DNA from: Xanthomonas sacchari
Lineage (GTDB): Bacteria; Pseudomonadota; Gammaproteobacteria; Xanthomonadales; Xanthomonadaceae
NCBI RefSeq assembly: GCF_040529065.1
Contig: NZ_CP132343.1
Span: 3,720,001 to 3,784,000, forward strand
Length of the DNA stretch: 64,000 nt
Direction of reading: 5' to 3'
A program made the position numbers and the translations under genes. Below, piece by piece: positions 29,165 to 42,103 of this stretch (position 1 is its first letter; each line of letters starts with the position of its first letter). The notes under the pieces are model-generated. The model did not search any database, had not been told where the DNA came from, and worked only from the letters and a program-made list of their open reading frames with translations.

Positions 29165-30844
29165 ATGCATCACGACACCAGTCTCATCGACATCATCGCG
29201 GTCGGGCTCGCGCTCGCCTTCGTCCTCGGCACGCTCGCCCATCGCCTCAAGCTCTCGCCGCTGGTCGGCTACCTGGTGGCAGGCATCTGCGTGGGGCCGT
29301 TCACGCCGGGCTTCGTCGCCGACCAGGCCCTGGCCACCCAGTTGTCGGAACTGGGGGTGATGCTGCTGATGTTCGGGGTGGGGCTGCACTTCTCGCTCGA
29401 AGACCTGATGGAAGTGAAGTGGATCGCGATCCCCGGCGCGCTGGCGCAGATCGCGGTCGCCACCCTGCTCGGCTGGGGGCTGGCCTGGAGCATGGGTTGG
29501 CCGACCCTGCACGGCCTGGTGTTCGGCCTGGCGCTGTCGGTGGCCAGCACCGTGGTGCTGCTGCGGGCGATGGAGGAACGGCGCCTGCTGGAAACCCAGC
29601 GCGGGCGCATCGCGGTCGGCTGGCTGATCGTGGAGGACCTGGTGATGGTGCTGGCGCTGGTGCTGCTGCCGGCGCTGGCCGACGCGCTCGGCGGCAAGGG
29701 CGCCGACACCGGGGCGATCCTCGGCGCGCTCGGCGTCACCCTGCTGAAGATGGCCGCGTTCGTAGCGGTGATGCTGGTGGTCGGCCGCCGCGCCATCCCG
29801 TGGGCGCTGGAGAAGGTCGCCGCGACCGGCTCGCGCGAGCTGTTCACCCTGTCGGTGCTCGCGATCGCGCTGGGCGTGGCGTTCGGCTCGGCCACCTTGT
29901 TCGGCGTGTCGTTCGCGCTGGGCGCGTTCTTCGCCGGCATGCTGCTGAAGGAATCGGAGCTGAGCCACAAGGCCGCCAACGACTCGCTGCCGCTGCGCGA
30001 CGCCTTCGCGGTGCTGTTCTTCGTCTCGGTGGGCATGCTGTTCGACCCGCATATCCTGGTCGAGCATCCGTGGCAGGTGCTGGCCACCTTCCTGACCATC
30101 ACCGTCGGCAAGTCGCTGGCCGCGTTCGTGATCGTGCGGGCGTTCGGCCACCCCACCGGCATCGCCCTGACGATCTCCACCAGCCTGGCGCAGATTGGCG
30201 AGTTCTCCTTCATCCTCGCCGGCCTCGGCGTGAGCCTGGCGATCCTGCCCGAGACCGGCCGCGACCTGATCCTGGCCGGCGCGCTGCTGTCGATCATCGC
30301 CAACCCGTTGCTGTTCAGCTGGCTGGACCGCTGGCAGGCGCGCCAGGCGGTGGAGGCGCCGGTGACGGTGGAACCGGAGCTGCCGCCGGGTCCGTCGCTG
30401 GATCTGGTCGACCACGCCATCGTGATTGGTTACGGCCGGGTCGGCAGCGCGCTGGCGGCGGTGCTGCGCGAGCGCGGCGTGCCGGTGCTGGTGATCGACG
30501 ACAACCGCGACCATGTCGAACGCGCCCACGCCGACGGCATCCCCGGCATCCGCGGCAGTGCCGCCGCCGACCGCGTGCTGGCCGAGGCGCATCCGGAGAA
30601 GGCCAAGATCGCGATCCTGGCGATCCCGCAGCCGCTGGAGGCCGGCGAGGCCCTGGCCAAGCTGCGTGCGCTGAATCCGGCGCTGACCCTGCTGGCGCGG
30701 GCGCACAGCGATGCCGAGGTCAAGCACCTGCTCGACCACGGCGCCGACGGCACGGTGATGGCCGAGCGCGAGCTGGCCTATTCGCTGGCGGAAATGGTGA
30801 TGGCGACGCCGCCGTACCGGGGGATGCGCGCCGTCGCGCGCTGA
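29165..30844 (+). CDS. ybaL: YbaL-like CPA2 K+/H+ antiporter with TrkA-N domain
   Basis: 559 aa, the same size as E. coli YbaL (558). Residues 1-385 are the 12-13-helix CPA2 exchanger: LVGYLVAGICVGPFTPGFV, LLMFGVGLHFSLEDLME, and LFFVSVGMLFDPHIL. Residues about 415-535 are a TrkA-N/RCK Rossmann domain: HAIVIGYGRVGSALAAVLRE (GxGxxG) and PVLVIDDNRDHVERAHADG, which binds nucleotides and gates the channel. It exports K+ in exchange for H+ and probably helps under electrophile or pH stress. Alone on its strand until the siderophore operon. Confidence 0.9.
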   Translation: MHHDTSLIDIIAVGLALAFVLGTLAHRLKLSPLVGYLVAGICVGPFTPGFVADQALATQLSELGVMLLMFGVGLHFSLEDLMEVKWIAIPGALAQIAVATLLGWGLAWSMGWPTLHGLVFGLALSVASTVVLLRAMEERRLLETQRGRIAVGWLIVEDLVMVLALVLLPALADALGGKGADTGAILGALGVTLLKMAAFVAVMLVVGRRAIPWALEKVAATGSRELFTLSVLAIALGVAFGSATLFGVSFALGAFFAGMLLKESELSHKAANDSLPLRDAFAVLFFVSVGMLFDPHILVEHPWQVLATFLTITVGKSLAAFVIVRAFGHPTGIALTISTSLAQIGEFSFILAGLGVSLAILPETGRDLILAGALLSIIANPLLFSWLDRWQARQAVEAPVTVEPELPPGPSLDLVDHAIVIGYGRVGSALAAVLRERGVPVLVIDDNRDHVERAHADGIPGIRGSAAADRVLAEAHPEKAKIAILAIPQPLEAGEALAKLRALNPALTLLARAHSDAEVKHLLDHGADGTVMAERELAYSLAEMVMATPPYRGMRAVAR

Positions 30845-30886: not shown

Positions 30887-30985
30887 CAAAAGCGGCTCCT
30901 CTTCGGCGAGTGAGTCGCAGCGAAAAGCGCGGTAGCGCACAGAAAGCGTCTACGGCGGCCGTGAAGCCCTGCAGCGAATCTTCTT

Positions 30986-31004
30986 GATAAGCATTCTCGT
31001 TTGC
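30986..31004 (+). promoter_or_regulatory. candidate Fur box of the siderophore operon
   Basis: GATAAGCATTCTCGTTTGC agrees at 12 of 19 positions with the classic GATAATGATAATCATTATC and has the ATAA..ATTCTC form often seen before xanthomonad iron genes. It ends 43 bases before the first ATG of the operon, where repression by Fur-Fe(II) would block transcription. Confidence 0.55.
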
Positions 31005-31047: not shown

Positions 31048-31779
31048 ATGGCCTGCAAGATCGGGTTGCTCAACTCCGTGCCCAGTGCCCTGCTGTGCGA
31101 GATGTTCGGGCATGTCGGCTACGACTTTGCGGTGCTGGACCTGGAACACGTGCTGCGCTCGCCAGCCGAGCTGGAACACGCCATCCGCGCCTGCGAGCTG
31201 GGCGGCTGCGAAGCCTGGGTGCGGGTGCCCGAGGTCGACGCCAAGCTGATCGGCCGGGTGCTCGACGCTGGCGCCCGCGGCGTGGTCCTGGCCGGGCTGG
31301 ACAGCGCCGAACAGGCCGAGCGCGCGGTTGCCGCCGCGCACTTTCCGCCGCACGGCCGCCGCGGCATCACCGGTGGCCGCGCCACCGGCTTCGGCAGCGT
31401 GGCCCTGGCCGACTACATCGCCCGCAGCCGTGAGCGCCTGCGCGTGATCCCGATGATCGAAAGCGCCGCCGGCGTGCGCGCGCTGCCGCAGATCCTGCAG
31501 GTGCCTGGCGTGTCGCTGGTGATGGAAGGCGCGTTGGACCTGGCGCTGGACCTGGGCCTCGGCCCGCAGCCCACCCACCCGCAGGTCTGGGAGCAGTTGC
31601 TGGCGATCGACGGGGCCTGTCGCGCCGCCGGCATTCCGTTCTGCCCCAATCCGCGCGACGCCGCGCAGCGCGCGCACTGGCTGGCGCAGGCGGACCTGCA
31701 GTGGCTGTTCGCCGGCGAGGACCGCGCGCTGCTGCAGGCCGCGTTGCGCCAGCGCGCGGCCGACCTGCGCAGCCCCTGA
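31048..31779 (+). CDS. mhpE: HpcH/HpaI-aldolase family enzyme, likely siderophore citrate synthase
   Basis: 243 aa, one HpcH/HpaI (citrate lyase/aldolase) TIM-barrel domain. Recognisable points: NSVPSALLCEMFGHVGYDFA then LDLEHVL, RVPEVDAKLIGRVLDAGARG, the Mg-binding Glu in VIPMIESAAG and the later Asp in GALDLALDLG. The family includes SbnG, which makes citrate from oxaloacetate and acetyl-CoA for staphyloferrin B. As first gene of a citrate-based siderophore operon it most likely supplies citrate. In Xanthomonas it has been called mhpE, though it is not a true 4-hydroxy-2-oxovalerate aldolase. No Shine-Dalgarno is visible before the ATG; a TTG 36 bases upstream is the alternative start. Confidence 0.85.
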   Translation: MACKIGLLNSVPSALLCEMFGHVGYDFAVLDLEHVLRSPAELEHAIRACELGGCEAWVRVPEVDAKLIGRVLDAGARGVVLAGLDSAEQAERAVAAAHFPPHGRRGITGGRATGFGSVALADYIARSRERLRVIPMIESAAGVRALPQILQVPGVSLVMEGALDLALDLGLGPQPTHPQVWEQLLAIDGACRAAGIPFCPNPRDAAQRAHWLAQADLQWLFAGEDRALLQAALRQRAADLRSP

Positions 31780-31807
31780 CCGTTTCGTTCCTGTTGGAGT
31801 CGTCGTC

Positions 31808-33937
31808 TTGATCGCTTCGCTTTCCCCTTCGCTGCTGGCCGTCGCCCTCGCCGCCGCCATGCTCGCTCCCACCAGCGTGCGCGCCGAGGACACCCCGCCC
31901 GACGCCGACGCGCAGGCGCGGATCCGCCAGCTCGACGCGGTGCAGGTGCAGGGCAGCCTGCTCGGCCGCTCCACCGTCGAGGACGTGCAGCACTACGCCG
32001 GCAGCCGCCAGGTGATCGACAACGTGCAACTGCGCACCGGCGCCAACCGCTCGCTGGACGATGCCCTGCAGAAGGTGCCGGGCATCAAGGTGTTCGACGA
32101 GACCGGCACCGGCGCGCTGCCGCAGATCATGCTGCGCGGCCTGTATGAAAGCCGCAGCGGCCGCGTGCAGGTGCTGGAGGACGGCATTCCGCTGGCGCTG
32201 GCGCCGTACGGGCAGACCAGCCTGTCGCTGTTCCCGGTCGGCCTGAACCAGATCGACCGCATCGACATCGTGCGCGGCGGCGCCGCGGTGCAGTACGGCC
32301 CCAACAACGTCGGCGGCGTGATCAACCTGATCAGCCCGGACATCCCCACCACCTGGACCACCACGCTGGGCCAGAAGGTCACCGCCGGCGGCGCCGGGCA
32401 TTACCTGGGCGACACCGCGATCAGCACCGGCGGCTACGCCAGCGACACGTTCGGCCTGCAACTGGACGCCAACTGGACCAAGGGCGACTACTGGCGCGAG
32501 CACAGCGCCACCGACATCAAGAACCTGCGCCTGCGCGCGGAATGGTGGCTGGCGCCGGACAAGCTGCTCAAGGCCAGCGTGCAGCGCTATGTCGCCGACA
32601 TGGACATGGCCGGCGCCTTGTCCGTCGCCGACTACCTGCGCGATTCCCGCCAGTCGACGCGGCCGCTGGACGAATTCACCGGCCGCACCACGCGCGCCTC
32701 GCTGGTCTACCAGCAGGACTTCGGCGACGTGGGGCCGTTCCAGGACCTGCGCCTGGACTGGAGCAATTTCAGCGCGCGCAGCAGCCGCAACTTCATTGTC
32801 GGCATGCGCTCGGCGTCCAGCGAGACCTGGCGCCCCGACCTGCCGCCGCAACTGCGGCAGAGCGCGCCACGCGATTTCCGGGTCTATGGCAGCGAGCCGC
32901 GGCTGAGCTGGACGATGGGCGACGGCGCTGTGCGCCAGCAGTGGACGTTGGGTGCCCGTGCGATCAACGAGGACATCGACTTCCTGGTCGGCAACACCCG
33001 CCTCAGCGACGGCCTGTACACCCTGGTGCGCGACTGGCGCTTCAAGGACCGCGGCGCGGCGGCCTACGTGAGCGACGCGATCGCGTTCGCCGACGGCCGC
33101 GTCACCGTCACCCCCGGCCTGCGCTACGAGCAGGTCGATTCGCGCTACTACAACCTGGCCAGCGGCGTGCGCACGCGCAACAAGACCGACGACGTGCTGC
33201 CCGGCCTGACCCTGGGCTTCCAGGCCACTCCGACGTGGTACCTGTACGCCGACGGCCAGCGCTCGCTGCGCGCGCCGCAGGTCACCCAGATCATCTTCGG
33301 CGACAACCTCGACGCCGAACTGGCCTGGAACTACGAGGCCGGCGCGCGCTACCAGCCCAACGAACGCACTCGCGTGCAGTTCGGCGGCTACCTGATCGAC
33401 TTCGACCAGCAGATCCAGCTCGACAACACCACGCGCACCTATCGCAACCTCGGCAAGACCCGCCACCAGGGCGCCGAAGTGGAAGTGCAGTGGAGCCCGG
33501 CGCAACTGCGCGCGCTGACCCTCAACGCCGGTTACGCCTACCTGGACGCGCGGCAGGAATCGGGCGTGTACGACGGCAATCGCGTGCCCTACACCTCGCG
33601 CAACCAGCTCACCCTCGGCGCGTCGTACCGGCCCGAATCCGGTCATACCACCGTCGCCGTTTCCAGCTATTACTTCAGCCGCGCCTTCAGCGATGCGGCC
33701 AACACCGTGCAGGAGAACGCGATCGCCTCGGTCGGCGAACTGCCCTCCTACTGGGTGTGGAACGCGCAGCTGAGCCAGGTGCTCAGCGAAGGCGCCAGCG
33801 GCAAGCTCAGCGCGTCGCTGGCGGTCAACAACCTGTTCGATCGCAAGTACTGGTACCGCGGCATCGACACCAGCCCCTGGGGCCGGCAGCCGGCGCCGGG
33901 CCGCAGCGTCACCGTCGGCCTCGAGTACACGTTCTGA
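31808..33937 (+). CDS. xsuA: xanthoferrin TonB-dependent receptor
   Basis: 709 aa, starting at TTG with GGAG 9 bases ahead. Signal peptide residues 1-26 (SLLAVALAAAMLAPTSVRAE), plug at about 40-180 (LDAVQVQGSLLGRSTVEDVQ, DALQKVPGIKVFDE, IMLRGLYESRSGRVQVLEDG, VRGGAAVQYGPNNVGGVINL), barrel ending VTVGLEYTF. It imports the ferric siderophore through the outer membrane with TonB energy. It is 28 bases after the aldolase gene and about 250 bases before xssA, within the siderophore operon, which matches the xsuA place in Xanthomonas and psuA/pvuA in vibrioferrin loci. Iron repression is expected from the Fur box upstream. Confidence 0.93.
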   Translation: MIASLSPSLLAVALAAAMLAPTSVRAEDTPPDADAQARIRQLDAVQVQGSLLGRSTVEDVQHYAGSRQVIDNVQLRTGANRSLDDALQKVPGIKVFDETGTGALPQIMLRGLYESRSGRVQVLEDGIPLALAPYGQTSLSLFPVGLNQIDRIDIVRGGAAVQYGPNNVGGVINLISPDIPTTWTTTLGQKVTAGGAGHYLGDTAISTGGYASDTFGLQLDANWTKGDYWREHSATDIKNLRLRAEWWLAPDKLLKASVQRYVADMDMAGALSVADYLRDSRQSTRPLDEFTGRTTRASLVYQQDFGDVGPFQDLRLDWSNFSARSSRNFIVGMRSASSETWRPDLPPQLRQSAPRDFRVYGSEPRLSWTMGDGAVRQQWTLGARAINEDIDFLVGNTRLSDGLYTLVRDWRFKDRGAAAYVSDAIAFADGRVTVTPGLRYEQVDSRYYNLASGVRTRNKTDDVLPGLTLGFQATPTWYLYADGQRSLRAPQVTQIIFGDNLDAELAWNYEAGARYQPNERTRVQFGGYLIDFDQQIQLDNTTRTYRNLGKTRHQGAEVEVQWSPAQLRALTLNAGYAYLDARQESGVYDGNRVPYTSRNQLTLGASYRPESGHTTVAVSSYYFSRAFSDAANTVQENAIASVGELPSYWVWNAQLSQVLSEGASGKLSASLAVNNLFDRKYWYRGIDTSPWGRQPAPGRSVTVGLEYTF

Positions 33938-34187
33938 TCCATCCCGGCGTCGGACGACGACGCCGGACGCCGCACCACCGCGCGCCAGCACGGCGCGCCG
34001 CCGCCCGCGGGAGACGCGGGCCAGTGCAACGGACGCAGCCGCGTCCTTCCCGTACCCAGCGCACGCCCGATGCGATGCGCCAGGCAACCACGCGACCCTG
34101 CCGCAGCCGCGGCGCCTGCCTCCCGTGTCCGCCTCTGCGCGGCCGCGCCGGCGGCGTGCGTGCGCCTGCGCCCGACGAGACCCGCAC

Positions 34188-35414
34188 ATGACCCCGCACG
34201 ACGCTCCCCTGCTGATCCTCAGCCACGTCTGCCACCCGGCGGTGACCGATGGCTTCCTCCCCGCCGCGCAACGCCTGGGCGTGCCGGTGCTGCTGCTGAC
34301 CGACCACCGCCACGCCCACCTCGAGCACTTCCGCCGCCATCCGCCGGCCGCACCGGTGCAGGTGCTGGAGTGCGACGTGTTCAATCCGCTGGGTGTGCTC
34401 GACTTGCTCGGCAGCCTGCCGCAGCCGCCGCGCGCGGTGTTCAGCAACAGCGATCACCTGCAGACCAGCGCCGCCGTGGTCGCCGCCGCGCTCGGCGTGC
34501 CCGGCAAGGATTGGCAGGTCTGCTACGCGGCCAAGAACAAGGCGGCGATGCGCCAGCGGCTGCGCGCGCTCGGCCTGCCGACGCCCTGGTTCTGCAGCCT
34601 GGCGCCGGGCGCGCAACCGCCGGCGCAGGCGCCATGGCCGCTGATCGCCAAGCCGCGCGAAGGCGTGGCGAGCCTGGACGTGCGCCACTGCGCCGACGCG
34701 ACGGCGCTGCAGACCTACCTCGATGATTTCTGGCAGCGCCACCCGCAGCGCAGCGTGCTGCTGGAAAGCATGCTTGAGGGTCCGCTGTTCACCCTGGAAA
34801 CGCTCGGCGACGGGCGCAGCCTGCAGCCGATCGGCGGCTTCGACGTGCAACTGTCGGCGCCGCCGCATTTCGTCGAATGCGAAGCGCGCTGGCGCGGCGC
34901 CACCGACACGCCGGTGCTGCAGCAGGCGCTGGCGCAACTGCAGGCGTTCGGCATCGGCTTCGGCGTGTGCCACAGCGAGTTCATCCTGACCGCCGACGGC
35001 CCGGTGCTGGTGGAGATCAACTACCGCAGCATCGGCGACGGCCGCGAGTTCCTGCTCGACCGCCTGTTCGGCGGGCACTGGTTCGACAGCGTCCTCGGCC
35101 TGCACCTGGGCCGCCCGCTGCCGACGCTGCAGGCGCGCCGCACGCACGCCCTGGTGCGCTACTACGTGGCCGAGCACGACGGCACGCTGGCCGTGGCCAG
35201 TGCCGACCACGCCAGCAGCGACGCGCACTGGGAAGCGCGTTACCGGCGCCTGCGGCAACCCGGCGACGCCATCCGCCTGAGCCATTCCAACAAGGATTAC
35301 CTGGGCGTACTGGACGTGCTCGCCGACACCGAGGTGGACCTGCAGCAGGCGCTGGACGGCACCGAGGCGTCGCTGCACTGGCGCATCGACAGCAGCATCG
35401 GAGCGGCCGCATGA
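34188..35414 (+). CDS. xssA: ATP-grasp ligase of siderophore assembly (PvsA-like)
   Basis: 408 aa, ATP-grasp superfamily. Pre-ATP-grasp fold at residues 1-100 (APLLILSHVCHPAVTDGFLP, FSNSDHLQTSAAVVAAALGV), ATP-binding lid with WPLIAKPREGVASLDV and VLLESMLEGPLFTLETLGDG, and Mg/ATP acid motif VLVEINYRSIGDGREFLL. PvsA in Vibrio ligates one building block of vibrioferrin through an acyl-phosphate. The start at 34188 is preceded by GACGAGA; an in-frame ATG 63 bases upstream is possible. It ends in an ATGA overlap with xssB, so their translation is coupled. Confidence 0.92.
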   Translation: MTPHDAPLLILSHVCHPAVTDGFLPAAQRLGVPVLLLTDHRHAHLEHFRRHPPAAPVQVLECDVFNPLGVLDLLGSLPQPPRAVFSNSDHLQTSAAVVAAALGVPGKDWQVCYAAKNKAAMRQRLRALGLPTPWFCSLAPGAQPPAQAPWPLIAKPREGVASLDVRHCADATALQTYLDDFWQRHPQRSVLLESMLEGPLFTLETLGDGRSLQPIGGFDVQLSAPPHFVECEARWRGATDTPVLQQALAQLQAFGIGFGVCHSEFILTADGPVLVEINYRSIGDGREFLLDRLFGGHWFDSVLGLHLGRPLPTLQARRTHALVRYYVAEHDGTLAVASADHASSDAHWEARYRRLRQPGDAIRLSHSNKDYLGVLDVLADTEVDLQQALDGTEASLHWRIDSSIGAAA

Positions 35415-37207
35415 GCCAGGACGCCGACCGCCGCTACATCGACCTGCGCGTGATCGACGCCTGCCTGCGCGAAGACCTGCGCGGCATCGTCAGCCGCGGC
35501 GCCGCTGCCACCCCGCCGCCGGCGGTGCTCGCCGCCTGGACCCAGGCGCCGCTGCCTACGGACGCCATCTGGTGGCGCATCGCGCACCTGCCCGACGGCG
35601 AACTGTGGCTGCCGCTGCGCCGTGCCGGCTACCTGCAGACGGTGAGCGCCTGCAGCGACGGCTGGGTGCTGCACACCGGGCAGCACAGCGCCTGCGAATC
35701 CGGCGCGGCGCAGTGGCTGGCGCGGCTGGGCGCCGGGCTCGATGCGGAGACCCAGGCGCTGCACCGCGCCTATGTCGAGGAAGCCGAGTGCGCGGTGCGC
35801 CAGCGTGCGTTGGCGCGGCAGGCCTATGCGCAGCAACGGCCGCTGCTGGCCACCGCGCTGGACGCGGCCGACGCGCACGAACGCGCCTACCGCTGCGAAC
35901 AACTGGCCAGCCACCGCGACCATCCGTTCTATCCCAGCGCACGCGCCAAGCTCGGCCTGGACGACGCCGACCTGCCGCGCTACGCACCGGAATTCGGCCC
36001 CAGCTTCGCACTGCGCTGGCTGGCGCTGCCGGCCGCGCAGGTCACCCAGACCACGCCGCCGCCGGCGTTCTGGCCGCGCCCGAGCATGCTCGGCCTGGAC
36101 CCGGCGTTGGACGCCGACCATGTCGCCTGGCCGCTGCATCCGCTGATCTTCGAACGCCTGGGCGAGGACGGCTTCGCCCTGCCGGCGGGCGCGATCGCCG
36201 CGCCGCAGCCGTGGCTGCAGGTGCGGCCCTCGCTGTCGCTGCGCACGGTGATTCCGCTGGCGTTTCCCGATCATCATCTGAAGCTGCCGGTGCCGATGCG
36301 CACGCTGGGCGCACTCAACCTGCGCCTGATCAAGCCGTCCACGCTGTACGACGGGCACTGGTTCGAGCGCGTGCTGCGCGACCTCGCCTCGCACGATCCG
36401 GCGCTGGGCGAACGCTACCTGCACGTGGACGAGGCGCATGCCGGCCATGTCGGCGAGACCCGGCACCTGTCCTACCTGCTGCGCCGCTATCCAGCGCTGC
36501 CGGAGGCGACCCTGGTCCCCGTGGCCGGCCTGTGCGCGCTGCTGCCCGATGGCCGCCCATTGGCCATGCACCTGGCCGAGCGCTTCCATGGCGGCGACCT
36601 CACCGCCTGGTGGGACAGCTACCTGGCGCTGATGTGCGAGGTGCACCTGCGGCTGTGGCTGCGCTACGGCATCGCCCTGGAGGCGAACCAGCAGAACAGC
36701 GTGCTGATCTACGCCGCCGGCCGTGCGCCGCGGCTGCTGATGAAGGACAACGATGCGGCGCGGGTGCTGCTGTCGCGGCTGCACGCGCAACGGCCGGCGC
36801 TGGCCGCGTTGGGCACCCCGCGCGATGCGCGCATCGCGGTGCAGGACGACGCCGCGCTGGCGCGGATGTTCTGCACCATCATCCTGCAGTTGGATCTGCA
36901 GGCGGTGCTGGAAGGGCTGGCGGAATGGCAGCCGGGGCTGCGCGCAACGCTCTACGCGCTGCTGCGCGCGCGCCTGCACGGCACCCTTCGCGCGCTGCGC
37001 GAAGAAGGCATCGACACCGCGCCGGCGCAGGCGCTGCTGGATGCACCGAAGCTCCCGGTGAAGTACCTGCTCAGCGCCGGCAGCCTGCTCGGCAAGCAGG
37101 TCACCGGCGCGGCGGACATCAACAAGTTCTACGGCGACAGCGCGCCCAACCTGCTGCGCGAGGATGCGCTGGCGGCGCGCGCGCTCGCGATCGGGGCGAC
37201 GCGATGA
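35411..37207 (+). CDS. xssB: NIS siderophore synthetase (PvsB-like)
   Basis: 598 aa, IucA/IucC family NRPS-independent siderophore synthetase. Motifs: HRDHPFYPSARAKLGLDDAD (substrate/ATP region), LSLRTVIPLAF, LKLPVPMRTLGALNLRLIKP (phosphate-gripping Arg and Lys), then HLRLWLRYGIALEANQQNSV and RLLMKDND near the C-terminus; a FhuF-like C-terminal part follows. It adenylates a carboxylate and joins it to an amine or alcohol. In the vibrioferrin model the PvsA and PvsB homologues add the alanine/2-oxoglutarate half to the citryl half; the exact order is not asserted here. ATGA overlaps at both ends. Confidence 0.93.
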   Translation: MSQDADRRYIDLRVIDACLREDLRGIVSRGAAATPPPAVLAAWTQAPLPTDAIWWRIAHLPDGELWLPLRRAGYLQTVSACSDGWVLHTGQHSACESGAAQWLARLGAGLDAETQALHRAYVEEAECAVRQRALARQAYAQQRPLLATALDAADAHERAYRCEQLASHRDHPFYPSARAKLGLDDADLPRYAPEFGPSFALRWLALPAAQVTQTTPPPAFWPRPSMLGLDPALDADHVAWPLHPLIFERLGEDGFALPAGAIAAPQPWLQVRPSLSLRTVIPLAFPDHHLKLPVPMRTLGALNLRLIKPSTLYDGHWFERVLRDLASHDPALGERYLHVDEAHAGHVGETRHLSYLLRRYPALPEATLVPVAGLCALLPDGRPLAMHLAERFHGGDLTAWWDSYLALMCEVHLRLWLRYGIALEANQQNSVLIYAAGRAPRLLMKDNDAARVLLSRLHAQRPALAALGTPRDARIAVQDDAALARMFCTIILQLDLQAVLEGLAEWQPGLRATLYALLRARLHGTLRALREEGIDTAPAQALLDAPKLPVKYLLSAGSLLGKQVTGAADINKFYGDSAPNLLREDALAARALAIGATR

Positions 37208-38376
37208 AGCGCATCCTCGGCCCGGTGCTGGCCGCGCACTACCTGGCGGCCTTCACCGCGCTGGGCATGCCGCTGTTCCTGCCGCAGGTGCTGCAGCAGC
37301 TGGCGCCAGGCGCGGCGATCGGCTGGAGCGGCGTGCTCTACGTGCTGCCGACGCTGTGCACCGCGCTCACCGCCAGCGCCTGGGGCCGGCTGGCAGATCG
37401 CTACGGACGCAAGCGCTCGCTGCTGCGCGCGCAACTCGGCCTGGCAGCGGGCTTCGCCATGGCCGGCTTCGCGCCGAACCTGGGCTGGCTGGTCGCCGGC
37501 CTGGTCGTGCAGGGCGCCTGCGGCGGCTCGCTGGCCGCGACCAATGCCTATCTCAGCAGCCAGTCGCAGCACGGCTCGCTAGCGCGGGCGCTGGACTGGA
37601 CCCAGTTCTCGGCGCGACTGGCGATGGTCACCGCCCCGGCCCTGCTTGGCCTGGCCACCACGCTGGGCCCGGCGCAGTCGCTGTACCGCTACCTGGCGCT
37701 GCTGCCACTGCTCGCCTTCGCGCTGAGCTGGCGCTTGCCGGACGATCCGCCGCGCGCGCCGGCGCCAGTCGTGTCCACGCCCGCGGTGCCGCATGCGGAT
37801 GCGGCGCAGCGCCGCCAGCGCTGGGCGCTGTGGACCACGCAGTTCCTGTTCTGCTTCGCGATGGTGGTGACCTTTCCCTACTTCCTGCCGTATGCGCAGG
37901 CGCACGGCATCGGCAGCAGCGCGGTCGCCGGCCTGCTGTACAGCCTGCCGCACCTGGTCTACCTGGTGCTGATGCCGTGCTGGCGCGGCCGCGACCACCG
38001 CGCATCGCCGCTGCCGGCCGGCCTGGCGCTGTTCGCCCTGGCCTGCCTGCTGCAGATGGCACCGCCGACGCCGGGCTGGCTGATCGCCGCGCGGCTGCTG
38101 TTCGGCCTGGGCATGTGGATGGCGCTGCGCGGCCTCAACCGCAGCCTGGCCGAGATCGCCGGCGGGCGCGGCGCCGGCCAGTTGTTCGGCCGTTTCGATG
38201 CTGCCGGCAAGTACGCCGGCGTCGCCGGCGGCGCCCTCGCCGGCGCCCTGGTGCAAGGCCATGGCCTGGCCGTGCCGTTCCTCGCCGCCGCCGCGGCCGT
38301 CCTGCTGGCGCTACTGCCGGCCCTGATGCTCACGTCCGTTCGGAGAACCGTCCATGTCCCCGTTGCCGATGCATGA
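37204..38376 (+). CDS. xssC: MFS siderophore exporter (PvsC-like)
   Basis: 390 aa with 12 likely membrane segments, two halves of six around a Pro/Ala-rich loop (about 178-205). The inner-loop MFS motif is GRLADRYGRKRSLLRAQLGL after helix 2. By position between two NIS synthetases and by homology to PvsC it should pump the finished siderophore out across the inner membrane. ATGA overlap with xssB; its last 23 bases overlap the start of xssD. Confidence 0.92.
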   Translation: MKRILGPVLAAHYLAAFTALGMPLFLPQVLQQLAPGAAIGWSGVLYVLPTLCTALTASAWGRLADRYGRKRSLLRAQLGLAAGFAMAGFAPNLGWLVAGLVVQGACGGSLAATNAYLSSQSQHGSLARALDWTQFSARLAMVTAPALLGLATTLGPAQSLYRYLALLPLLAFALSWRLPDDPPRAPAPVVSTPAVPHADAAQRRQRWALWTTQFLFCFAMVVTFPYFLPYAQAHGIGSSAVAGLLYSLPHLVYLVLMPCWRGRDHRASPLPAGLALFALACLLQMAPPTPGWLIAARLLFGLGMWMALRGLNRSLAEIAGGRGAGQLFGRFDAAGKYAGVAGGALAGALVQGHGLAVPFLAAAAAVLLALLPALMLTSVRRTVHVPVADA

Positions 38377-40111
38377 CCCGTGGTACGACAGCCTGGCGCA
38401 AGCGCAGGCGATCACTTGCTGGCTCAACTGCTACCTGCGCGAAGTCGCGCTCGGGCGCGGCCTGGCCGACTTCGACTATCGCGGCCTGGACCGGCCCGGC
38501 ATCGCCGCCGCCGGCGAGCGCTGGCTGCGCCTGCGCCTGCCCTCCGGCGCCACGCTGTGCGTGCGCCTGGCGCATGCCGACGGCCTGGGCCGCTGCCGCT
38601 TCGCTTCGGCGCCCTACCTCAAGGCCGACGGGCGTCCCTGGCACTGCCTGGACGCAGAGGCGCTGGTGCGCCGGCTGTTGCAGGAGCTGAGCGAAGGCGA
38701 ACAGGCGCCGAACCTGGAACTGCTGGCGCAGAGCGCCAACAGCATCGCCATCACCGCGCAGTTGCTGCGCCAGGCCGAGGCCGCCCCGCCCACCGGCGAA
38801 GCGCTGATCGACGCCGAGCAGTCGATGCTGTGGGGCCACGCCTTCCATCCCACGCCCAAGAGCCGCGAAGGCGTGCCGTTGGACCAGGTGCTGGCCTGCG
38901 CGCCGGAAGCGCGCAGCGCCTTCCCGCTGTTCTGGTTCCGCATTGACCCGCGCCTGTACCGCGCGCAGGGCGATGACGTGCGCGCGACGCTGGCGCAGGC
39001 CGGCGGCGGCGCCGACCTGTACCCCTGCCATCCGTGGGAAGCCGAGCGCGTGTTGGCCCATCCGCTGCTGCGCCAAGCGCAGGCGCGCGGCTGGATCGAG
39101 CCGCTGGGCGAACGCGGCCTGGCGCTGCGCCCGACCTCGTCGGTGCGCACGCTGTATCACGCCGACCTCGATCATTTCCTCAAGCTGTCGGTGCACGTGC
39201 GCCTGACCAACTGCGTGCGCAAGAACGCCTGGTACGAACTGGAAAGCGCGGTGGCGCTGACCCGCCTGCTGGCCCCGGACTGGCAGGCGCTGGCGCAGCG
39301 CGTGCCCGGCTTCCACGTACTGCTGGAGCCGGCCGCCACCGACCTGGACTTCTCCGCGCTGGACGCCGATGCGCAGGCCTGCCGCGAACTCGGCGAAAGC
39401 TTCGGCGTGCTGTACCGGCAGGCGATCCCCGCGGCGCAGCGCGCGCGCTATCGCCCGCAGGTGGCCGGTGCACTGTTCACCAACGACGCGCGCGGCGAGC
39501 CGGCCTGCACCGCCGCGCTGCAGGCGCTGGCGCAACGCAGCGGCAGCAGCCTGGAGGCGGCCACCGCGGCCTGGTTCCGCGCTTACGCACAGTTGCTGCT
39601 GGATGGCGTGTGGAGCGCCTGGTTCGGCTACGGCATCGTGCTCGAGCCGCATCTGCAGAACACCGTGATCGGTTGCGAGGACGGCCTGCCGACGCAGGTG
39701 TGGATCCGCGACCTGGAAGGCACCAAGCTGCTGCCGTCGCGCTGGCCGGCCGCGCGCCTGCCCGGCATGTCCGAGACTGCACGGCAGTCGCTGTACTACA
39801 GCGCCGAACGCGGCTGGAACCGCATCGCCTACTGCGCACTGGTCAACAACCTGGCCGAAGCGATCTTCCACCTCGCCGACGGCCACGACCGCCGCGAACG
39901 CCAGCTGTGGCAGATCGTCGGCGACATCGCGCGAACATGGCAGCAGCGTCACGGCACGCAACCGGCACTGCAGGCCCTGCTCGACGGCGCGCCGCTGCCG
40001 GCCAAGAACAACCTGCGTCTGCGCCTGCTGCAGCGTGCCGACCGCCATGCCGACTACAGCTTCCTGCCCAACCCGATCGGCAGCGCCGCGCTGCGGCAGG
40101 CGGCGGCATGA
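38354..40111 (+). CDS. xssD: NIS siderophore synthetase (PvsD-like)
   Basis: 585 aa, second IucA/IucC-type synthetase. Motifs: WGHAFHPTPKSREGVPLDQV (HPxPKSR, the hallmark of the family), ALRPTSSVRTLYH, FLKLSVHVRLTNCVRKNAWY, and FGYGIVLEPHLQNTVI near the end. In vibrioferrin synthesis PvsD joins citrate to L-serine to give O-citrylserine, so XssD probably takes the citrate made by the first gene of the operon. Starts inside the end of xssC and ends in an ATGA overlap with xssE. Confidence 0.93.
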   Translation: MSPLPMHDPWYDSLAQAQAITCWLNCYLREVALGRGLADFDYRGLDRPGIAAAGERWLRLRLPSGATLCVRLAHADGLGRCRFASAPYLKADGRPWHCLDAEALVRRLLQELSEGEQAPNLELLAQSANSIAITAQLLRQAEAAPPTGEALIDAEQSMLWGHAFHPTPKSREGVPLDQVLACAPEARSAFPLFWFRIDPRLYRAQGDDVRATLAQAGGGADLYPCHPWEAERVLAHPLLRQAQARGWIEPLGERGLALRPTSSVRTLYHADLDHFLKLSVHVRLTNCVRKNAWYELESAVALTRLLAPDWQALAQRVPGFHVLLEPAATDLDFSALDADAQACRELGESFGVLYRQAIPAAQRARYRPQVAGALFTNDARGEPACTAALQALAQRSGSSLEAATAAWFRAYAQLLLDGVWSAWFGYGIVLEPHLQNTVIGCEDGLPTQVWIRDLEGTKLLPSRWPAARLPGMSETARQSLYYSAERGWNRIAYCALVNNLAEAIFHLADGHDRRERQLWQIVGDIARTWQQRHGTQPALQALLDGAPLPAKNNLRLRLLQRADRHADYSFLPNPIGSAALRQAAA

Positions 40112-41361
40112 GCCTGCGCATCGATCCCGCCCCCCTGCACGCGGCGCTGGCGCGGCTGCGCGCACAGGCCGACGGCCCGGTCTGCGCCTACGTCTACGAC
40201 CTGGCAGCGCTGCAGGCGCATGCGGCGATGCTGCGCGCACAGCTGCCTGCCGAGTGCGAGCTGTTGTATGCGGCCAAGGCCAATGCCGAACCGCCGGTGC
40301 TGCGCACGCTGGCGCCGTGGGTGGACGGTTTCGAGGCGGCCTCCGGCGGCGAACTGCAATGGCTGCACACGCATCAGCCAGGCCGCCGGCTGCTGTTCGG
40401 CGGCCCCGGCAAGCTCGACAGCGAACTGCAGTTGGCCGCCAGCCTGCCCGACTGCAGCGTGCACGTGGAAAGCCTGGGCGAGCTGCAGCGGCTGGCGCGC
40501 ATCGCCGCATCGAGGGAGCGGCCGCTGTCGGTCTTCCTGCGCCTGAACATCATGGTGCCGGGCATGCAGGACACGCGCCTGGTGATGGGCGGGCGGCCCT
40601 CGCCGTTCGGCCTGGACGTGGACGATCTGGACGCGGCCATGCAGGTACTGCGTGGCGCGAGCGGACTGCGCCTGGACGGCTTCCACTTCCACCTGCTGTC
40701 GCACCAGCGCGATGCGCAGCTGCAGTTGCGGCTGATCGCACACTACCTGCAGACCGTGCAGGGCTGGCGCCAAGCCTATGGATTGGGACCGCTGACGGTG
40801 AATGCCGGCGGCGGCTTCGGCGTGGACTATGCCGATCCGGCAGCTTCGTTCGATTGGGCGACGTTCTGCGCAGGATTGCCGACGCTGCTGCACACGCATG
40901 GCGATGGCCTGCGCCTGCGCCTGGAACCGGGCCGCTACGTCAGCGCCGCCTGCGGCTGGTACCTGATGGAGGTGCTGGACATCAAGCGCAGCCATGGCGC
41001 GCAGTTCGCCATCGGCCGCGGCGGCACCCATCATTTCCGCACGCCTGCCGCGCAAGGCCACGACCATCCGTTTCTGGTGCTGCGCGGCACCCAGCCGCCG
41101 GTGCTGCGCGATGCGCGGGTGACCCTGGTCGGCCAGCTGTGCACGCCCAAGGACGTGCTGGCCCGCGACCAGCCGGTGGCCGCGCTGGCGCCGGGCGACT
41201 GCCTGGCGTTCCCACTGGCCGGCGCCTACGCCTGGAACATCTCGCACCAGCACTTCCTGATGCATCCACCGCCGCAGATGCTGTTCCTCGACGCCGCTGC
41301 GCAAGCCGCCGATGCCATGCCGCAGCGCCGCATTGCCGACCCGGCCACCGCCGCGTCATGA
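40108..41361 (+). CDS. xssE: PLP-dependent decarboxylase of siderophore assembly (PvsE-like)
   Basis: 417 aa, fold type III (diaminopimelate/ornithine decarboxylase-like). The PLP lysine is in CELLYAAKANAEPPVL (residues ~50-65), the Gly-rich phosphate loop is NAGGGFGVDY, with EPGRYVSAACGWY and the active-site Cys in LVGQLCTPKDVLARD. In vibrioferrin PvsE decarboxylates O-citrylserine to O-citrylethanolamine. ATGA overlap with xssD. It closes the seven-gene operon; the psiF-type gene follows 53 bases later. Confidence 0.93.
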   Translation: MSLRIDPAPLHAALARLRAQADGPVCAYVYDLAALQAHAAMLRAQLPAECELLYAAKANAEPPVLRTLAPWVDGFEAASGGELQWLHTHQPGRRLLFGGPGKLDSELQLAASLPDCSVHVESLGELQRLARIAASRERPLSVFLRLNIMVPGMQDTRLVMGGRPSPFGLDVDDLDAAMQVLRGASGLRLDGFHFHLLSHQRDAQLQLRLIAHYLQTVQGWRQAYGLGPLTVNAGGGFGVDYADPAASFDWATFCAGLPTLLHTHGDGLRLRLEPGRYVSAACGWYLMEVLDIKRSHGAQFAIGRGGTHHFRTPAAQGHDHPFLVLRGTQPPVLRDARVTLVGQLCTPKDVLARDQPVAALAPGDCLAFPLAGAYAWNISHQHFLMHPPPQMLFLDAAAQAADAMPQRRIADPATAAS

Positions 41362-41414: not shown

Positions 41415-41729
41415 ATGACCCGTTCCGCTCGCTTCGCCGCCACCTGTTTGCTGCTGAGCTTCACCGCCGCCCCGCTGCTGGCCACCGCCGCGCCCAAGCC
41501 ACCGACCGCACAACAGACCCTGATGGCCAAGTGTTCGGCCCAGAACAAGGGCAAGAAAGGCGACGAGTACAAGAGCGCGCAGAAGGCCTGCCTCAGCGGC
41601 GGCGCCGCCCCGGCGGCCGGCAACGCCTCCCAGCAACGCATGAAGGACTGCAACGCGCAAGCCGCGACGCAGAAGCTGCAGGGCGACGCCCGCAAGACCT
41701 TCATGAGCGGTTGTCTGAAGAAGCAGTGA
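41415..41729 (+). CDS. psiF: PsiF-family exported protein
   Basis: 104 aa. Signal peptide residues 1-25 (FAATCLLLSFTAAPLLATAA). Two PsiF repeats: MAKCSAQNKGKKGDEYKSAQ with ACLSG, and MKDCNAQAATQKLQGDARKT with GCLKKQ, each with two Cys. PsiF was named for phosphate-starvation induction in E. coli; its job is unknown. GGAG stands 10 bases ahead of this ATG. Another in-frame ATG at 41358 overlaps the xssE stop (ATGA) and would add 19 residues without a signal peptide start. It may be co-transcribed with the siderophore operon, but its family is not tied to iron. Confidence 0.82.
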   Translation: MTRSARFAATCLLLSFTAAPLLATAAPKPPTAQQTLMAKCSAQNKGKKGDEYKSAQKACLSGGAAPAAGNASQQRMKDCNAQAATQKLQGDARKTFMSGCLKKQ

Positions 41730-41738
41730 GCCGACTAG

Positions 41739-42056
41739 CCCCTTTCCCACCGGGAGAGGGGTTGGGGTGAGGGTACGTCGCGTAGCGTCTCGCGGTGTTT
41801 GGGCGCACGAGGCTGCGCCCGTACCCTCATCCGCCCCTGCGGGGCACCTTCTCCCGGAGGGAGAAGGAAAAAAGCTAAGCCCCTCTCCCCTCGGGAGAGG
41901 GGTTGGGGTGAGGGTACGGCGCGTAGCGTCTCGCGATGGTTGAATGCACGAGGCTGCGCCCTACCCTCATCCGCCCCTTCGGGGCACCTTCTCCCGAGGG
42001 GAGAAGGAAAAGCTAAGCCCCTCTCCCCTCGGGAGAGGGGTTGGGGTGAGGGTACG
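41739..42056. repeat. A-B-A-B-A hairpin repeat array
   Basis: Three unit A copies (about 41739-41777, 41880-41917, 42017-42054) alternate with two unit B copies (about 41820-41869, 41961-42010). The A-to-A period is about 140 bp. Between A and B lies a shared stretch with GCGTAGCGTCTCGCG and CACGAGGCTGCGCCC, so the whole block is a tandem duplication. All units are strong hairpins. It fills most of the gap 41730-42103. Confidence 0.9.
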
Positions 42057-42103
42057 ACAGCCAGCGAGACCGGCAACAACCGCAGTGCCAACCGCCACCG
42101 CTC

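What the first reader, a model, noticed from the sequence alone, without database searches (positions are those of the whole stretch)
31048..41361. Complete xanthoferrin-type operon led by an SbnG-like citrate-forming enzyme
Seen: seven genes in one direction, five of them joined by ATGA or longer overlaps, with NIS, ATP-grasp, PLP-decarboxylase, MFS and TonB receptor signatures. Known: XssA-E/XsuA correspond to PvsA-E/PsuA of vibrioferrin, and SbnG of staphyloferrin B is an HpcH/HpaI protein acting as a dedicated citrate synthase. Inferred: the first gene, usually called an aldolase, supplies citrate for XssD, so the operon could make siderophore when TCA-cycle citrate is low under iron starvation. 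I know of no test of this role for the Xanthomonas gene.
Basis: partly seen in the sequence, partly recalled or inferred. Interest (0 to 1): 0.7.

Follow-up and report, generated by a model that had tools for sequence, protein, structure and literature searches.

The report
Citrate-making enzyme in xanthoferrin operon
The first gene of an iron-scavenging operon in a Xanthomonas, usually labelled an aldolase, belongs by sequence to the SbnG family of siderophore citrate synthases, so the operon probably makes its own citrate, but the enzyme itself was not tested here.

Summary
The operon is real: seven intact same-strand genes at 31048-41361 behind the window's best Fur-box match (30983-31001). 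Gene 1 is not a typical HpaI aldolase. A ten-row profile without S. aureus SbnG finds SbnG in the PDB at 304 bits, the next protein at 164. A tree puts 25 rows (24 from siderophore clusters, SbnG among them, and one orphan) opposite 15 aldolase-side rows, support 100/99. The gene type also sits in vibrioferrin-, achromobactin- and staphyloferrin B-type clusters. Strong matches to it and to PvsA occur in the same 52 of 395 same-family genomes. Two Vibrio and one Piscirickettsia vibrioferrin operons lack it, so it is optional to the chemistry and perhaps lost there. Most likely it is an iron-regulated second citrate synthase feeding XssD. Activity and physiological need are untested. It is a new member of a known kind, hidden under the names mhpE and aldolase.

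The parts
30983..31001 (+). Fur-box-like operator CTTGATAAGCATTCTCGTT, 46 nt before the ATG of gene 1
   Evidence: 14/19 to the Fur consensus printed in PMC1790865; best site in the 64-kb window; 13-15/19 at the same place in 35 of 35 loci of the window's genus and of group g17 (taken to be the campestris group), which are 30 distinct genomes; a Fur box for the Xcc gene XCC3049 (mphE) is published
31048..31779 (+). SbnG-type citrate synthase (predicted); called mhpE/mphE or aldolase in Xanthomonas papers
31808..33937 (+). TonB-dependent ferric-siderophore receptor (XsuA), FecA-like
   Evidence: FecA 295 bits
34188..35414 (+). ATP-grasp enzyme, PvsA/XssA type
   Evidence: 54% identical to a Pantoea gene annotated PvsA; Xss-Pvs naming from PMC11035887 (passage)
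35411..37207 (+). NIS synthetase, PvsB/XssB type
37204..38376 (+). MFS exporter, PvsC/XssC type
38369..40111 (+). NIS synthetase, PvsD/XssD type; nearest solved relative AcsD (recalled to be a citrate-activating enzyme)
   Evidence: AcsD 241 bits, IucA 119 bits
40108..41361 (+). PLP decarboxylase, PvsE/XssE type; nearest solved relative 6knh
   Evidence: 325 bits; 6knh is named SbnH in PMC7139808

Best explanation
The operon is a xanthoferrin (vibrioferrin-type) biosynthesis, export and uptake operon whose first gene encodes a citrate synthase of the SbnG kind. On iron starvation Fur is expected to leave the site at 30983-31001, and gene 1 is the first gene behind it. Its enzyme condenses oxaloacetate with acetyl-CoA to citrate on an HpcH/HpaI barrel. 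XssD, the AcsD-like NIS synthetase, then activates that citrate. This gives the siderophore pathway a citrate source that is under iron control and independent of the TCA citrate synthase. Shown here: gene content, conserved Fur-box sequence, membership of the SbnG clade, clade-specific residues, linkage to NIS clusters. Inferred: the reaction, the regulation in this strain and the physiological benefit.
For: Profile of 10 rows (the window, eight from other siderophore clusters, one orphan; SbnG not among them): 4tv5 304 bits, 4tv6 301 bits, next PDB protein 164. 4tv5 is SbnG according to PMC7139808 Table 1. Single-sequence search: 138 bits for 4tv5, 108 for the next protein. Tree: 25 rows versus 15, support 100/99. 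R203 is Arg in 24 of 24 SbnG-side rows and 0 of 15 others, R226 in 23 of 24 and 0 of 15, Ala162 in 22 of 24 and 1 of 15, where 14 have Pro (one broken row, XanG250, left out). The gene lies inside NIS clusters in 7 of 7 further genomes that score 223 bits or more, and no NIS homologue was found beside the 8 lower-scoring relatives whose surroundings I fetched. Of 13 plasmid records fetched for a gene-1 match, 7 have it in an NIS cluster and one more is an operon remnant; a second Rhodococcus plasmid, fetched for PvsA, has it too. Strong matches are linked to the PvsA gene in 52 of 52 same-family genomes. Conserved Fur box. Score of 108 against a curated cut-off of 369 for the HpaI equivalog model.
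Against: No assay of this enzyme or a Xanthomonas orthologue was seen in anything I could read. Identity to SbnG is only 37% over the aligned part. The genome has three PF00285 matches, so citrate is presumably available without it. Two Vibrio and one Piscirickettsia operons with all of PvsA-E lack the gene within 10 kb, as do four distant actinomycete PvsA-like clusters. In one relative (G250) the gene looks broken while the rest of the operon is still recognisable. Five of the 13 plasmid records lie outside any annotated NIS cluster; one of them (Acinetobacter, L049) has a cut reading beside a TonB receptor and is unclear. The acetyl-CoA site could not be examined; the structure model was too poor to use.
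Confidence: 0.84

Rival explanations
1. Gene 1 is an ordinary class II 2-oxo-acid (sugar-acid) aldolase of catabolism that happens to lie in front of the operon. A 2012 X. albilineans paper reads an HpcH/HpaI gene beside a receptor this way.
For: Pfam HpcH_HpaI 91 bits; aldolase models are the best NCBIfam matches; the four shared active-site residues are those of the aldolases; PMC3542200 assigns glucarate/galactarate catabolism (passage).
Against: Far below every aldolase cut-off; falls with SbnG at 100/99; lacks the Pro that 14 of 15 aldolase-side rows have at the GPxDL motif and has the two SbnG-side arginines; with the siderophore genes in 52 of 52 strong matches in the family, whereas the two weak relatives there (37-38% identity) have no PvsA match; no sugar-acid gene in the operon.
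Confidence: 0.06
2. It belongs to the SbnG clade but has drifted to another product (for example another 2-hydroxy acid) used by this siderophore.
For: Only 37% identity to SbnG; activity in the clade is proven, to my knowledge, only for the S. aureus enzyme; vibrioferrin, achromobactin and staphyloferrin B share a 2-oxoglutarate unit as well as citrate (recalled chemistry).
Against: XssD is closest to AcsD, recalled to be a citrate enzyme; the clade-specific residues are kept across three siderophore classes whose common backbone acid is citrate (chemistry recalled).
Confidence: 0.07
3. Not exclusive of the best explanation: it is a true SbnG-type citrate synthase but of no measurable use in this strain, because the TCA citrate synthase supplies enough.
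For: Three PF00285 matches in the genome; two Vibrio and one Piscirickettsia operons lack the gene; a broken copy in G250.
Against: Present in 52 of 52 same-family genomes with a strong PvsA match and first behind the Fur box in the 30 distinct genomes scanned, which argues for selection.
Confidence: 0.2

Closest known systems
SbnG, citrate synthase of the staphyloferrin B cluster (S. aureus, PDB 4tv5/4tv6)
   Same: HpcH/HpaI family; H47, R72, E151, D177 and the clade-specific A175, R216, R238; in both cases an NIS siderophore cluster with an SbnH-type decarboxylase
   Different: 37% identical; here first gene of a vibrioferrin-type operon; activity unproven
xss/xanthoferrin cluster of X. campestris and X. 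citri (mhpE, xsuA, xssA-E)
   Same: same seven genes by name (PMC6804348, passages); same Fur-box place; mphE promoter fused to a reporter in X. citri
   Different: gene 1 is 67-71% identical in group g17, which I take to be the campestris group; the passages I read give mhpE no role
HpcH/HpaI genes of achromobactin clusters (Thalassospira, Sodalis; AcsB of P. syringae)
   Same: Thalassospira and Sodalis rows fall in the same clade; P. syringae acsB is annotated HpcH/HpaI in its cluster (PMC3329529, passage); one paper calls such a gene of P. agarici a predicted SbnG (PMC7696170, passage)
   Different: different siderophore class; P. syringae AcsB itself was not placed in the tree
pvsABCDE vibrioferrin operon of Vibrio
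   Same: PvsA-E gene set and order
   Different: no SbnG-type gene within 10 kb in the two Vibrio plasmid operons examined
GarL, RhmA/YfaU, HpaI aldolases
   Same: same Pfam family and the same His, Arg, Glu, Asp
   Different: GPxDL instead of EGAxDL; no clade arginines; 27-31% identity for the four compared

Membership tests
SbnG-type citrate synthase | HpcH/HpaI domain | tested here: met
   PF03328 91 bits, cut-off 25
SbnG-type citrate synthase | catalytic Arg72, Glu151, Asp177 (roles recalled) | tested here: met
   R59, E138, D164 here; not diagnostic, since 15 of 15 aldolase-side rows have them
SbnG-type citrate synthase | groups with SbnG apart from aldolases | tested here: met
   100/99, 25 versus 15 rows; 304 versus 164 bits
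SbnG-type citrate synthase | clade-specific residues A175, R216, R238 | tested here: met
   A162, R203, R226
SbnG-type citrate synthase | member of an NIS siderophore cluster | tested here: met
SbnG-type citrate synthase | repressed by Fur | tested here: inconclusive
   conserved Fur-box sequence; binding or regulation not testable here
SbnG-type citrate synthase | makes citrate from oxaloacetate and acetyl-CoA | not testable with these tools
   needs an assay
SbnG-type citrate synthase | metal-independent; acetyl-CoA site | not testable with these tools
   site not defined in any paper I could read; model too poor
HpaI / GarL / RhmA aldolase | passes curated equivalog cut-off | tested here: not met
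   108 of 369, 100 of 407, 92 of 441 bits
HpaI / GarL / RhmA aldolase | GPxDL motif | tested here: not met
   EGALDL here; Pro in 14 of 15 aldolase-side rows
MhpE 4-hydroxy-2-oxovalerate aldolase (the published gene name) | HMGL-like domain (PF00682, recalled) | tested here: not met
   only PF03328 matched at E up to 0.001
xanthoferrin/vibrioferrin operon | PvsA, PvsB, PvsC, PvsD, PvsE homologues plus receptor | tested here: met
xanthoferrin/vibrioferrin operon | product is xanthoferrin | not testable with these tools
   vibrioferrin was measured by HPLC in X. campestris by others (PMC5130282, passages)

The most novel reading that the evidence does not exclude
The vibrioferrin pathway of Proteobacteria ancestrally carried its own SbnG-type citrate synthase, and the textbook Vibrio operon is a reduced form that lost it. 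The enzyme would be a portable iron-controlled citrate module that goes with NIS siderophores drawing on both citrate and 2-oxoglutarate, uncoupling siderophore output from TCA flux.
Probability: 0.4. Interest if true: 0.6.

Novelty: new member of a known kind. Interest (0 to 1): 0.45.

Why it matters
It replaces a misleading label (mhpE, aldolase, sugar-acid catabolism) with a concrete, cheaply testable role, and probably corrects a published guess that the adjacent X. albilineans receptor imports carbohydrate. It names residues that separate siderophore citrate synthases from aldolases, which the usual active-site check does not. It also raises an evolutionary question: why do some vibrioferrin producers keep their own citrate source while Vibrio does not?

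Tried and rejected
Of the 20 positions first flagged as clade-specific with 13 versus 7 rows, only 6 stayed at 21 or more of 24 versus 2 or fewer of 15 in the larger set (V80, F115, L120, A162, R203, R226). The others, among them the GG of GGR and the C-terminal FC and Trp, were dropped as less strict; at V80 SbnG itself has Ile. XanG250 was left out of that count because its reading is out of frame in the middle (24 of 25 rows used; the 24 include the P. mandelii orphan). Rows were called aldolase-side before the tree, from annotation or from lack of NIS genes nearby; no activity was proven for them here. Structure prediction gave mean pLDDT 45 from a shallow alignment, so no fold search was run. 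L049 (Acinetobacter) was left out of the alignments because its reading was cut to 32 residues. The four Streptomyces, Embleya and Nonomuraea PvsA-like clusters also lack the gene within 10 kb, but they are distant and bear no annotation in the stretch, so I give them little weight. I did not test aerobactin, staphyloferrin A or rhizoferrin clusters as negative controls.

The cut-offs for 'strong' in the family count (gene 1 below 1e-70, PvsA below 1e-100) were set after seeing the gap in the scores. At E 1e-10, 54 of 395 genomes match gene 1 (two weak) and 71 of 395 match PvsA (19 weak). The tree of PvsA+B+D+E is a quick search with 21 rows and long branches; its outgroup was not one side of a branch. 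Loss in Vibrio is the simplest reading there, not shown. In the phylum sample, strong PvsA hits are in 5 of 398 genomes, the window's own included, and 3 of those 5 have the gene.

Papers not held and so not read: Kobylarz 2014, Pandey 2017, Pandey and Sonti 2010, Guerra and Balan 2020. That SbnG forms a clade with homologues from other siderophore clusters is recalled from the 2014 abstract. No paper in the held library contains both SbnG and Xanthomonas; this says nothing about papers not held.
Full report
What is there. The window lies in a 4.96-Mb one-contig genome. Seven intact genes run in one direction from 31048 to 41361. Pfam gives HpcH/HpaI, TonB receptor, weak ATP-grasp, IucA/IucC, MFS, IucA/IucC and PLP decarboxylase. 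The order after gene 1 is receptor, PvsA, B, C, D, E. PvsA-E are joined by overlaps of 4, 4, 8 and 4 bases. All seven genes are found in the same order in the 5 Xanthomonas loci.

Promoter. The best Fur-box match in the whole window is CTTGATAAGCATTCTCGTT at 30983-31001 (14/19), 46 nt before the ATG. Random 150-nt stretches of the window reach 13 or more in 1 of 2000 draws. In most g17 loci the site is letter for letter the published one before XCC3049, called mphE, given as 41 bp from its start (PMC1790865, passage). In X. citri the cluster is described as mhpE, xsuA and xssA-E, and the mphE promoter was measured with a reporter (PMC6804348, passages). The operon is therefore known; what was unclear is gene 1.

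Is gene 1 an aldolase or SbnG-like? Single-sequence search of the PDB: 4tv5 and 4tv6 lead with 138 and 137 bits, then 108 for 3qz6 and 90 for YfaU. 4tv5 is SbnG according to PMC7139808 Table 1, and 4tv6 differs by Glu to Gln at 151 in the printed alignment. A ten-row profile (the window, eight rows from other siderophore clusters and the P. mandelii orphan) that does not contain SbnG gives 304 bits for 4tv5, 301 for 4tv6 and 164 for the next protein. NCBIfam aldolase models are reached only at 92-108 bits against cut-offs of 369-441. A maximum-likelihood tree of 40 rows puts 25 rows (24 from siderophore clusters, SbnG included, and the orphan) on one side of a branch with support 100/99 and the 15 aldolase-side rows on the other.

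Which residues tell. SbnG H47, R72 and E151 are in 25 of 25 and 15 of 15 rows, and D177 in 24 of 25 and 15 of 15 (the catalytic role of R72, E151 and D177 is recalled). Leaving out the out-of-frame XanG250 row, R203 (SbnG R216) is Arg in 24 of 24 against 0 of 15, R226 (R238) in 23 of 24 against 0 of 15, and Ala162 (A175) in 22 of 24 against 1 of 15, where 14 have Pro. The window protein has all of these. My guess, not a result, is that the two arginines serve the acetyl-CoA or oxaloacetate site.

Company it keeps. In the family, strong gene-1 matches (E below 1e-70) occur in 52 of 395 genomes and strong PvsA matches (E below 1e-100) in the same 52, all on one strand and one contig; two genomes have only a weak gene-1 relative and 19 only a weak PvsA relative. 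The gap is 2.2-2.6 kb in 49 of 52; the three others are two with no receptor between (192 and 252 bases) and one with an insertion (9.2 kb). Four genomes of the window's own genus lack both. Elsewhere the same gene type lies in vibrioferrin-type operons of Pantoea soli, Cupriavidus necator pHG1 and two Rhodococcus plasmids, achromobactin-type clusters of Thalassospira and Sodalis, and staphyloferrin B-type clusters of Pseudonocardia and Agrobacterium. I fetched 13 of the 325 plasmid records with a gene-1 match: 7 have it in an NIS cluster, one is an operon remnant (P. mandelii), and five are not in an annotated NIS cluster. In samples of 369 class and 398 phylum genomes the profile scores split. 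Seven genomes besides the window's own score 223 bits or more (six of them 346 or more), and all seven lie in NIS clusters: four vibrioferrin-, two achromobactin-, one staphyloferrin B-like. Of the many lower-scoring relatives I fetched the surroundings of 8, and none shows an NIS homologue in the stretch held, two of the stretches being short. P. syringae acsB is annotated HpcH/HpaI inside the achromobactin cluster (PMC3329529, passage), and one paper already labels such a gene of P. agarici predicted SbnG (PMC7696170, passage).

Where it is missing. Vibrioferrin operons on two Vibrio plasmids and one Piscirickettsia plasmid have PvsA-E and no such gene within 10 kb. In a tree of PvsA, B, D and E the Vibrio pair sits beside Pantoea, inside the group that has the gene in first place, and Piscirickettsia, on a long branch, inside the group that has it in last place. 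Loss in both is the simplest reading, on few rows. Four distant actinomycete clusters lack it too. It follows that the gene is probably not needed for the chemistry when TCA citrate is at hand.

How it most likely works. XssD is closest to AcsD (241 bits; IucA 119), recalled to be a citrate-activating NIS synthetase. The decarboxylase is closest to SbnH (325 bits) and the receptor to FecA (295 bits). Gene 1 would make citrate from oxaloacetate and acetyl-CoA under iron control, for XssD. The genome also has three PF00285 matches, so the advantage would lie where TCA citrate is scarce. This fits S. aureus. There, deletion of sbnG in a citZ citB mutant had no significant effect on citrate in rich medium but made it undetectable under an iron chelator, and a plasmid copy reversed this (PMC11315280, passages). 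A review table gives no contribution to virulence for sbnG alone and a contribution for sbnG with citZ (PMC7139808, passages). A normal single mutant in Xanthomonas would therefore not refute the idea.

Verdict. Identity is well supported; function is inferred. It is a new member of a known kind, with a misleading name in Xanthomonas. I found no paper that joins SbnG and Xanthomonas in the held library, but the key papers on SbnG structure and on xanthoferrin genetics were not readable here, so I do not claim that the link is unpublished.

Noticed in passing
L136 4077-12983 (genome G202): The receptor gene of the operon is split by an insertion of about 6.8 kb; gene 1 and PvsA are 9.2 kb apart instead of about 2.4 kb.
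   Followed up: no
L139 13348-14052 (genome G250): Gene 1 looks broken: the reading is out of frame in part of its second half, with many unusual substitutions. PvsA, PvsB, MFS and receptor are 52-63% identical to the window, PvsD/E 79-82%, as if the operon were mosaic or decaying at its 5' side.
   Followed up: partly
L040 12001-13569 (Pseudomonas mandelii JR-1 plasmid): Orphan SbnG-type gene with a Fur-box-like site (15/19), followed by a receptor fragment that stops just before a Tn3-family transposase gene: apparent remnant of a vibrioferrin-type operon.
   Followed up: partly
L007 10001-20235 (X. albilineans): A 2012 paper reads the HpcH/HpaI gene beside receptor XALc_0723 as sugar-acid catabolism and the receptor as a possible carbohydrate importer (PMC3542200, passage). 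In the X. albilineans strain fetched here such a gene pair starts a whole xanthoferrin-type operon; that the loci are the same is inferred.
   Followed up: partly
L049 8001-11107 (Acinetobacter soli plasmid): A gene-1 relative (33% identity) whose reading was cut to 32 residues lies just before a TonB-receptor gene, with no NIS gene annotated; its nature is unclear.
   Followed up: no
window 41737-42099: Three copies of an 84-nt and two of a 53-nt GC-rich repeat with palindromic cores, just after a PsiF-repeat protein gene at 41415-41729.
   Followed up: no
window 29165-30844: Sodium/hydrogen-exchanger family gene with a TrkA-N domain (Kef-like) on the same strand, just before the operon.
   Followed up: no
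G000:C1:4007007-4010994: Besides the best PF00285 match at 1373917, two more lie about 2 kb apart on opposite strands, one of them covering only part of the model.
   Followed up: no
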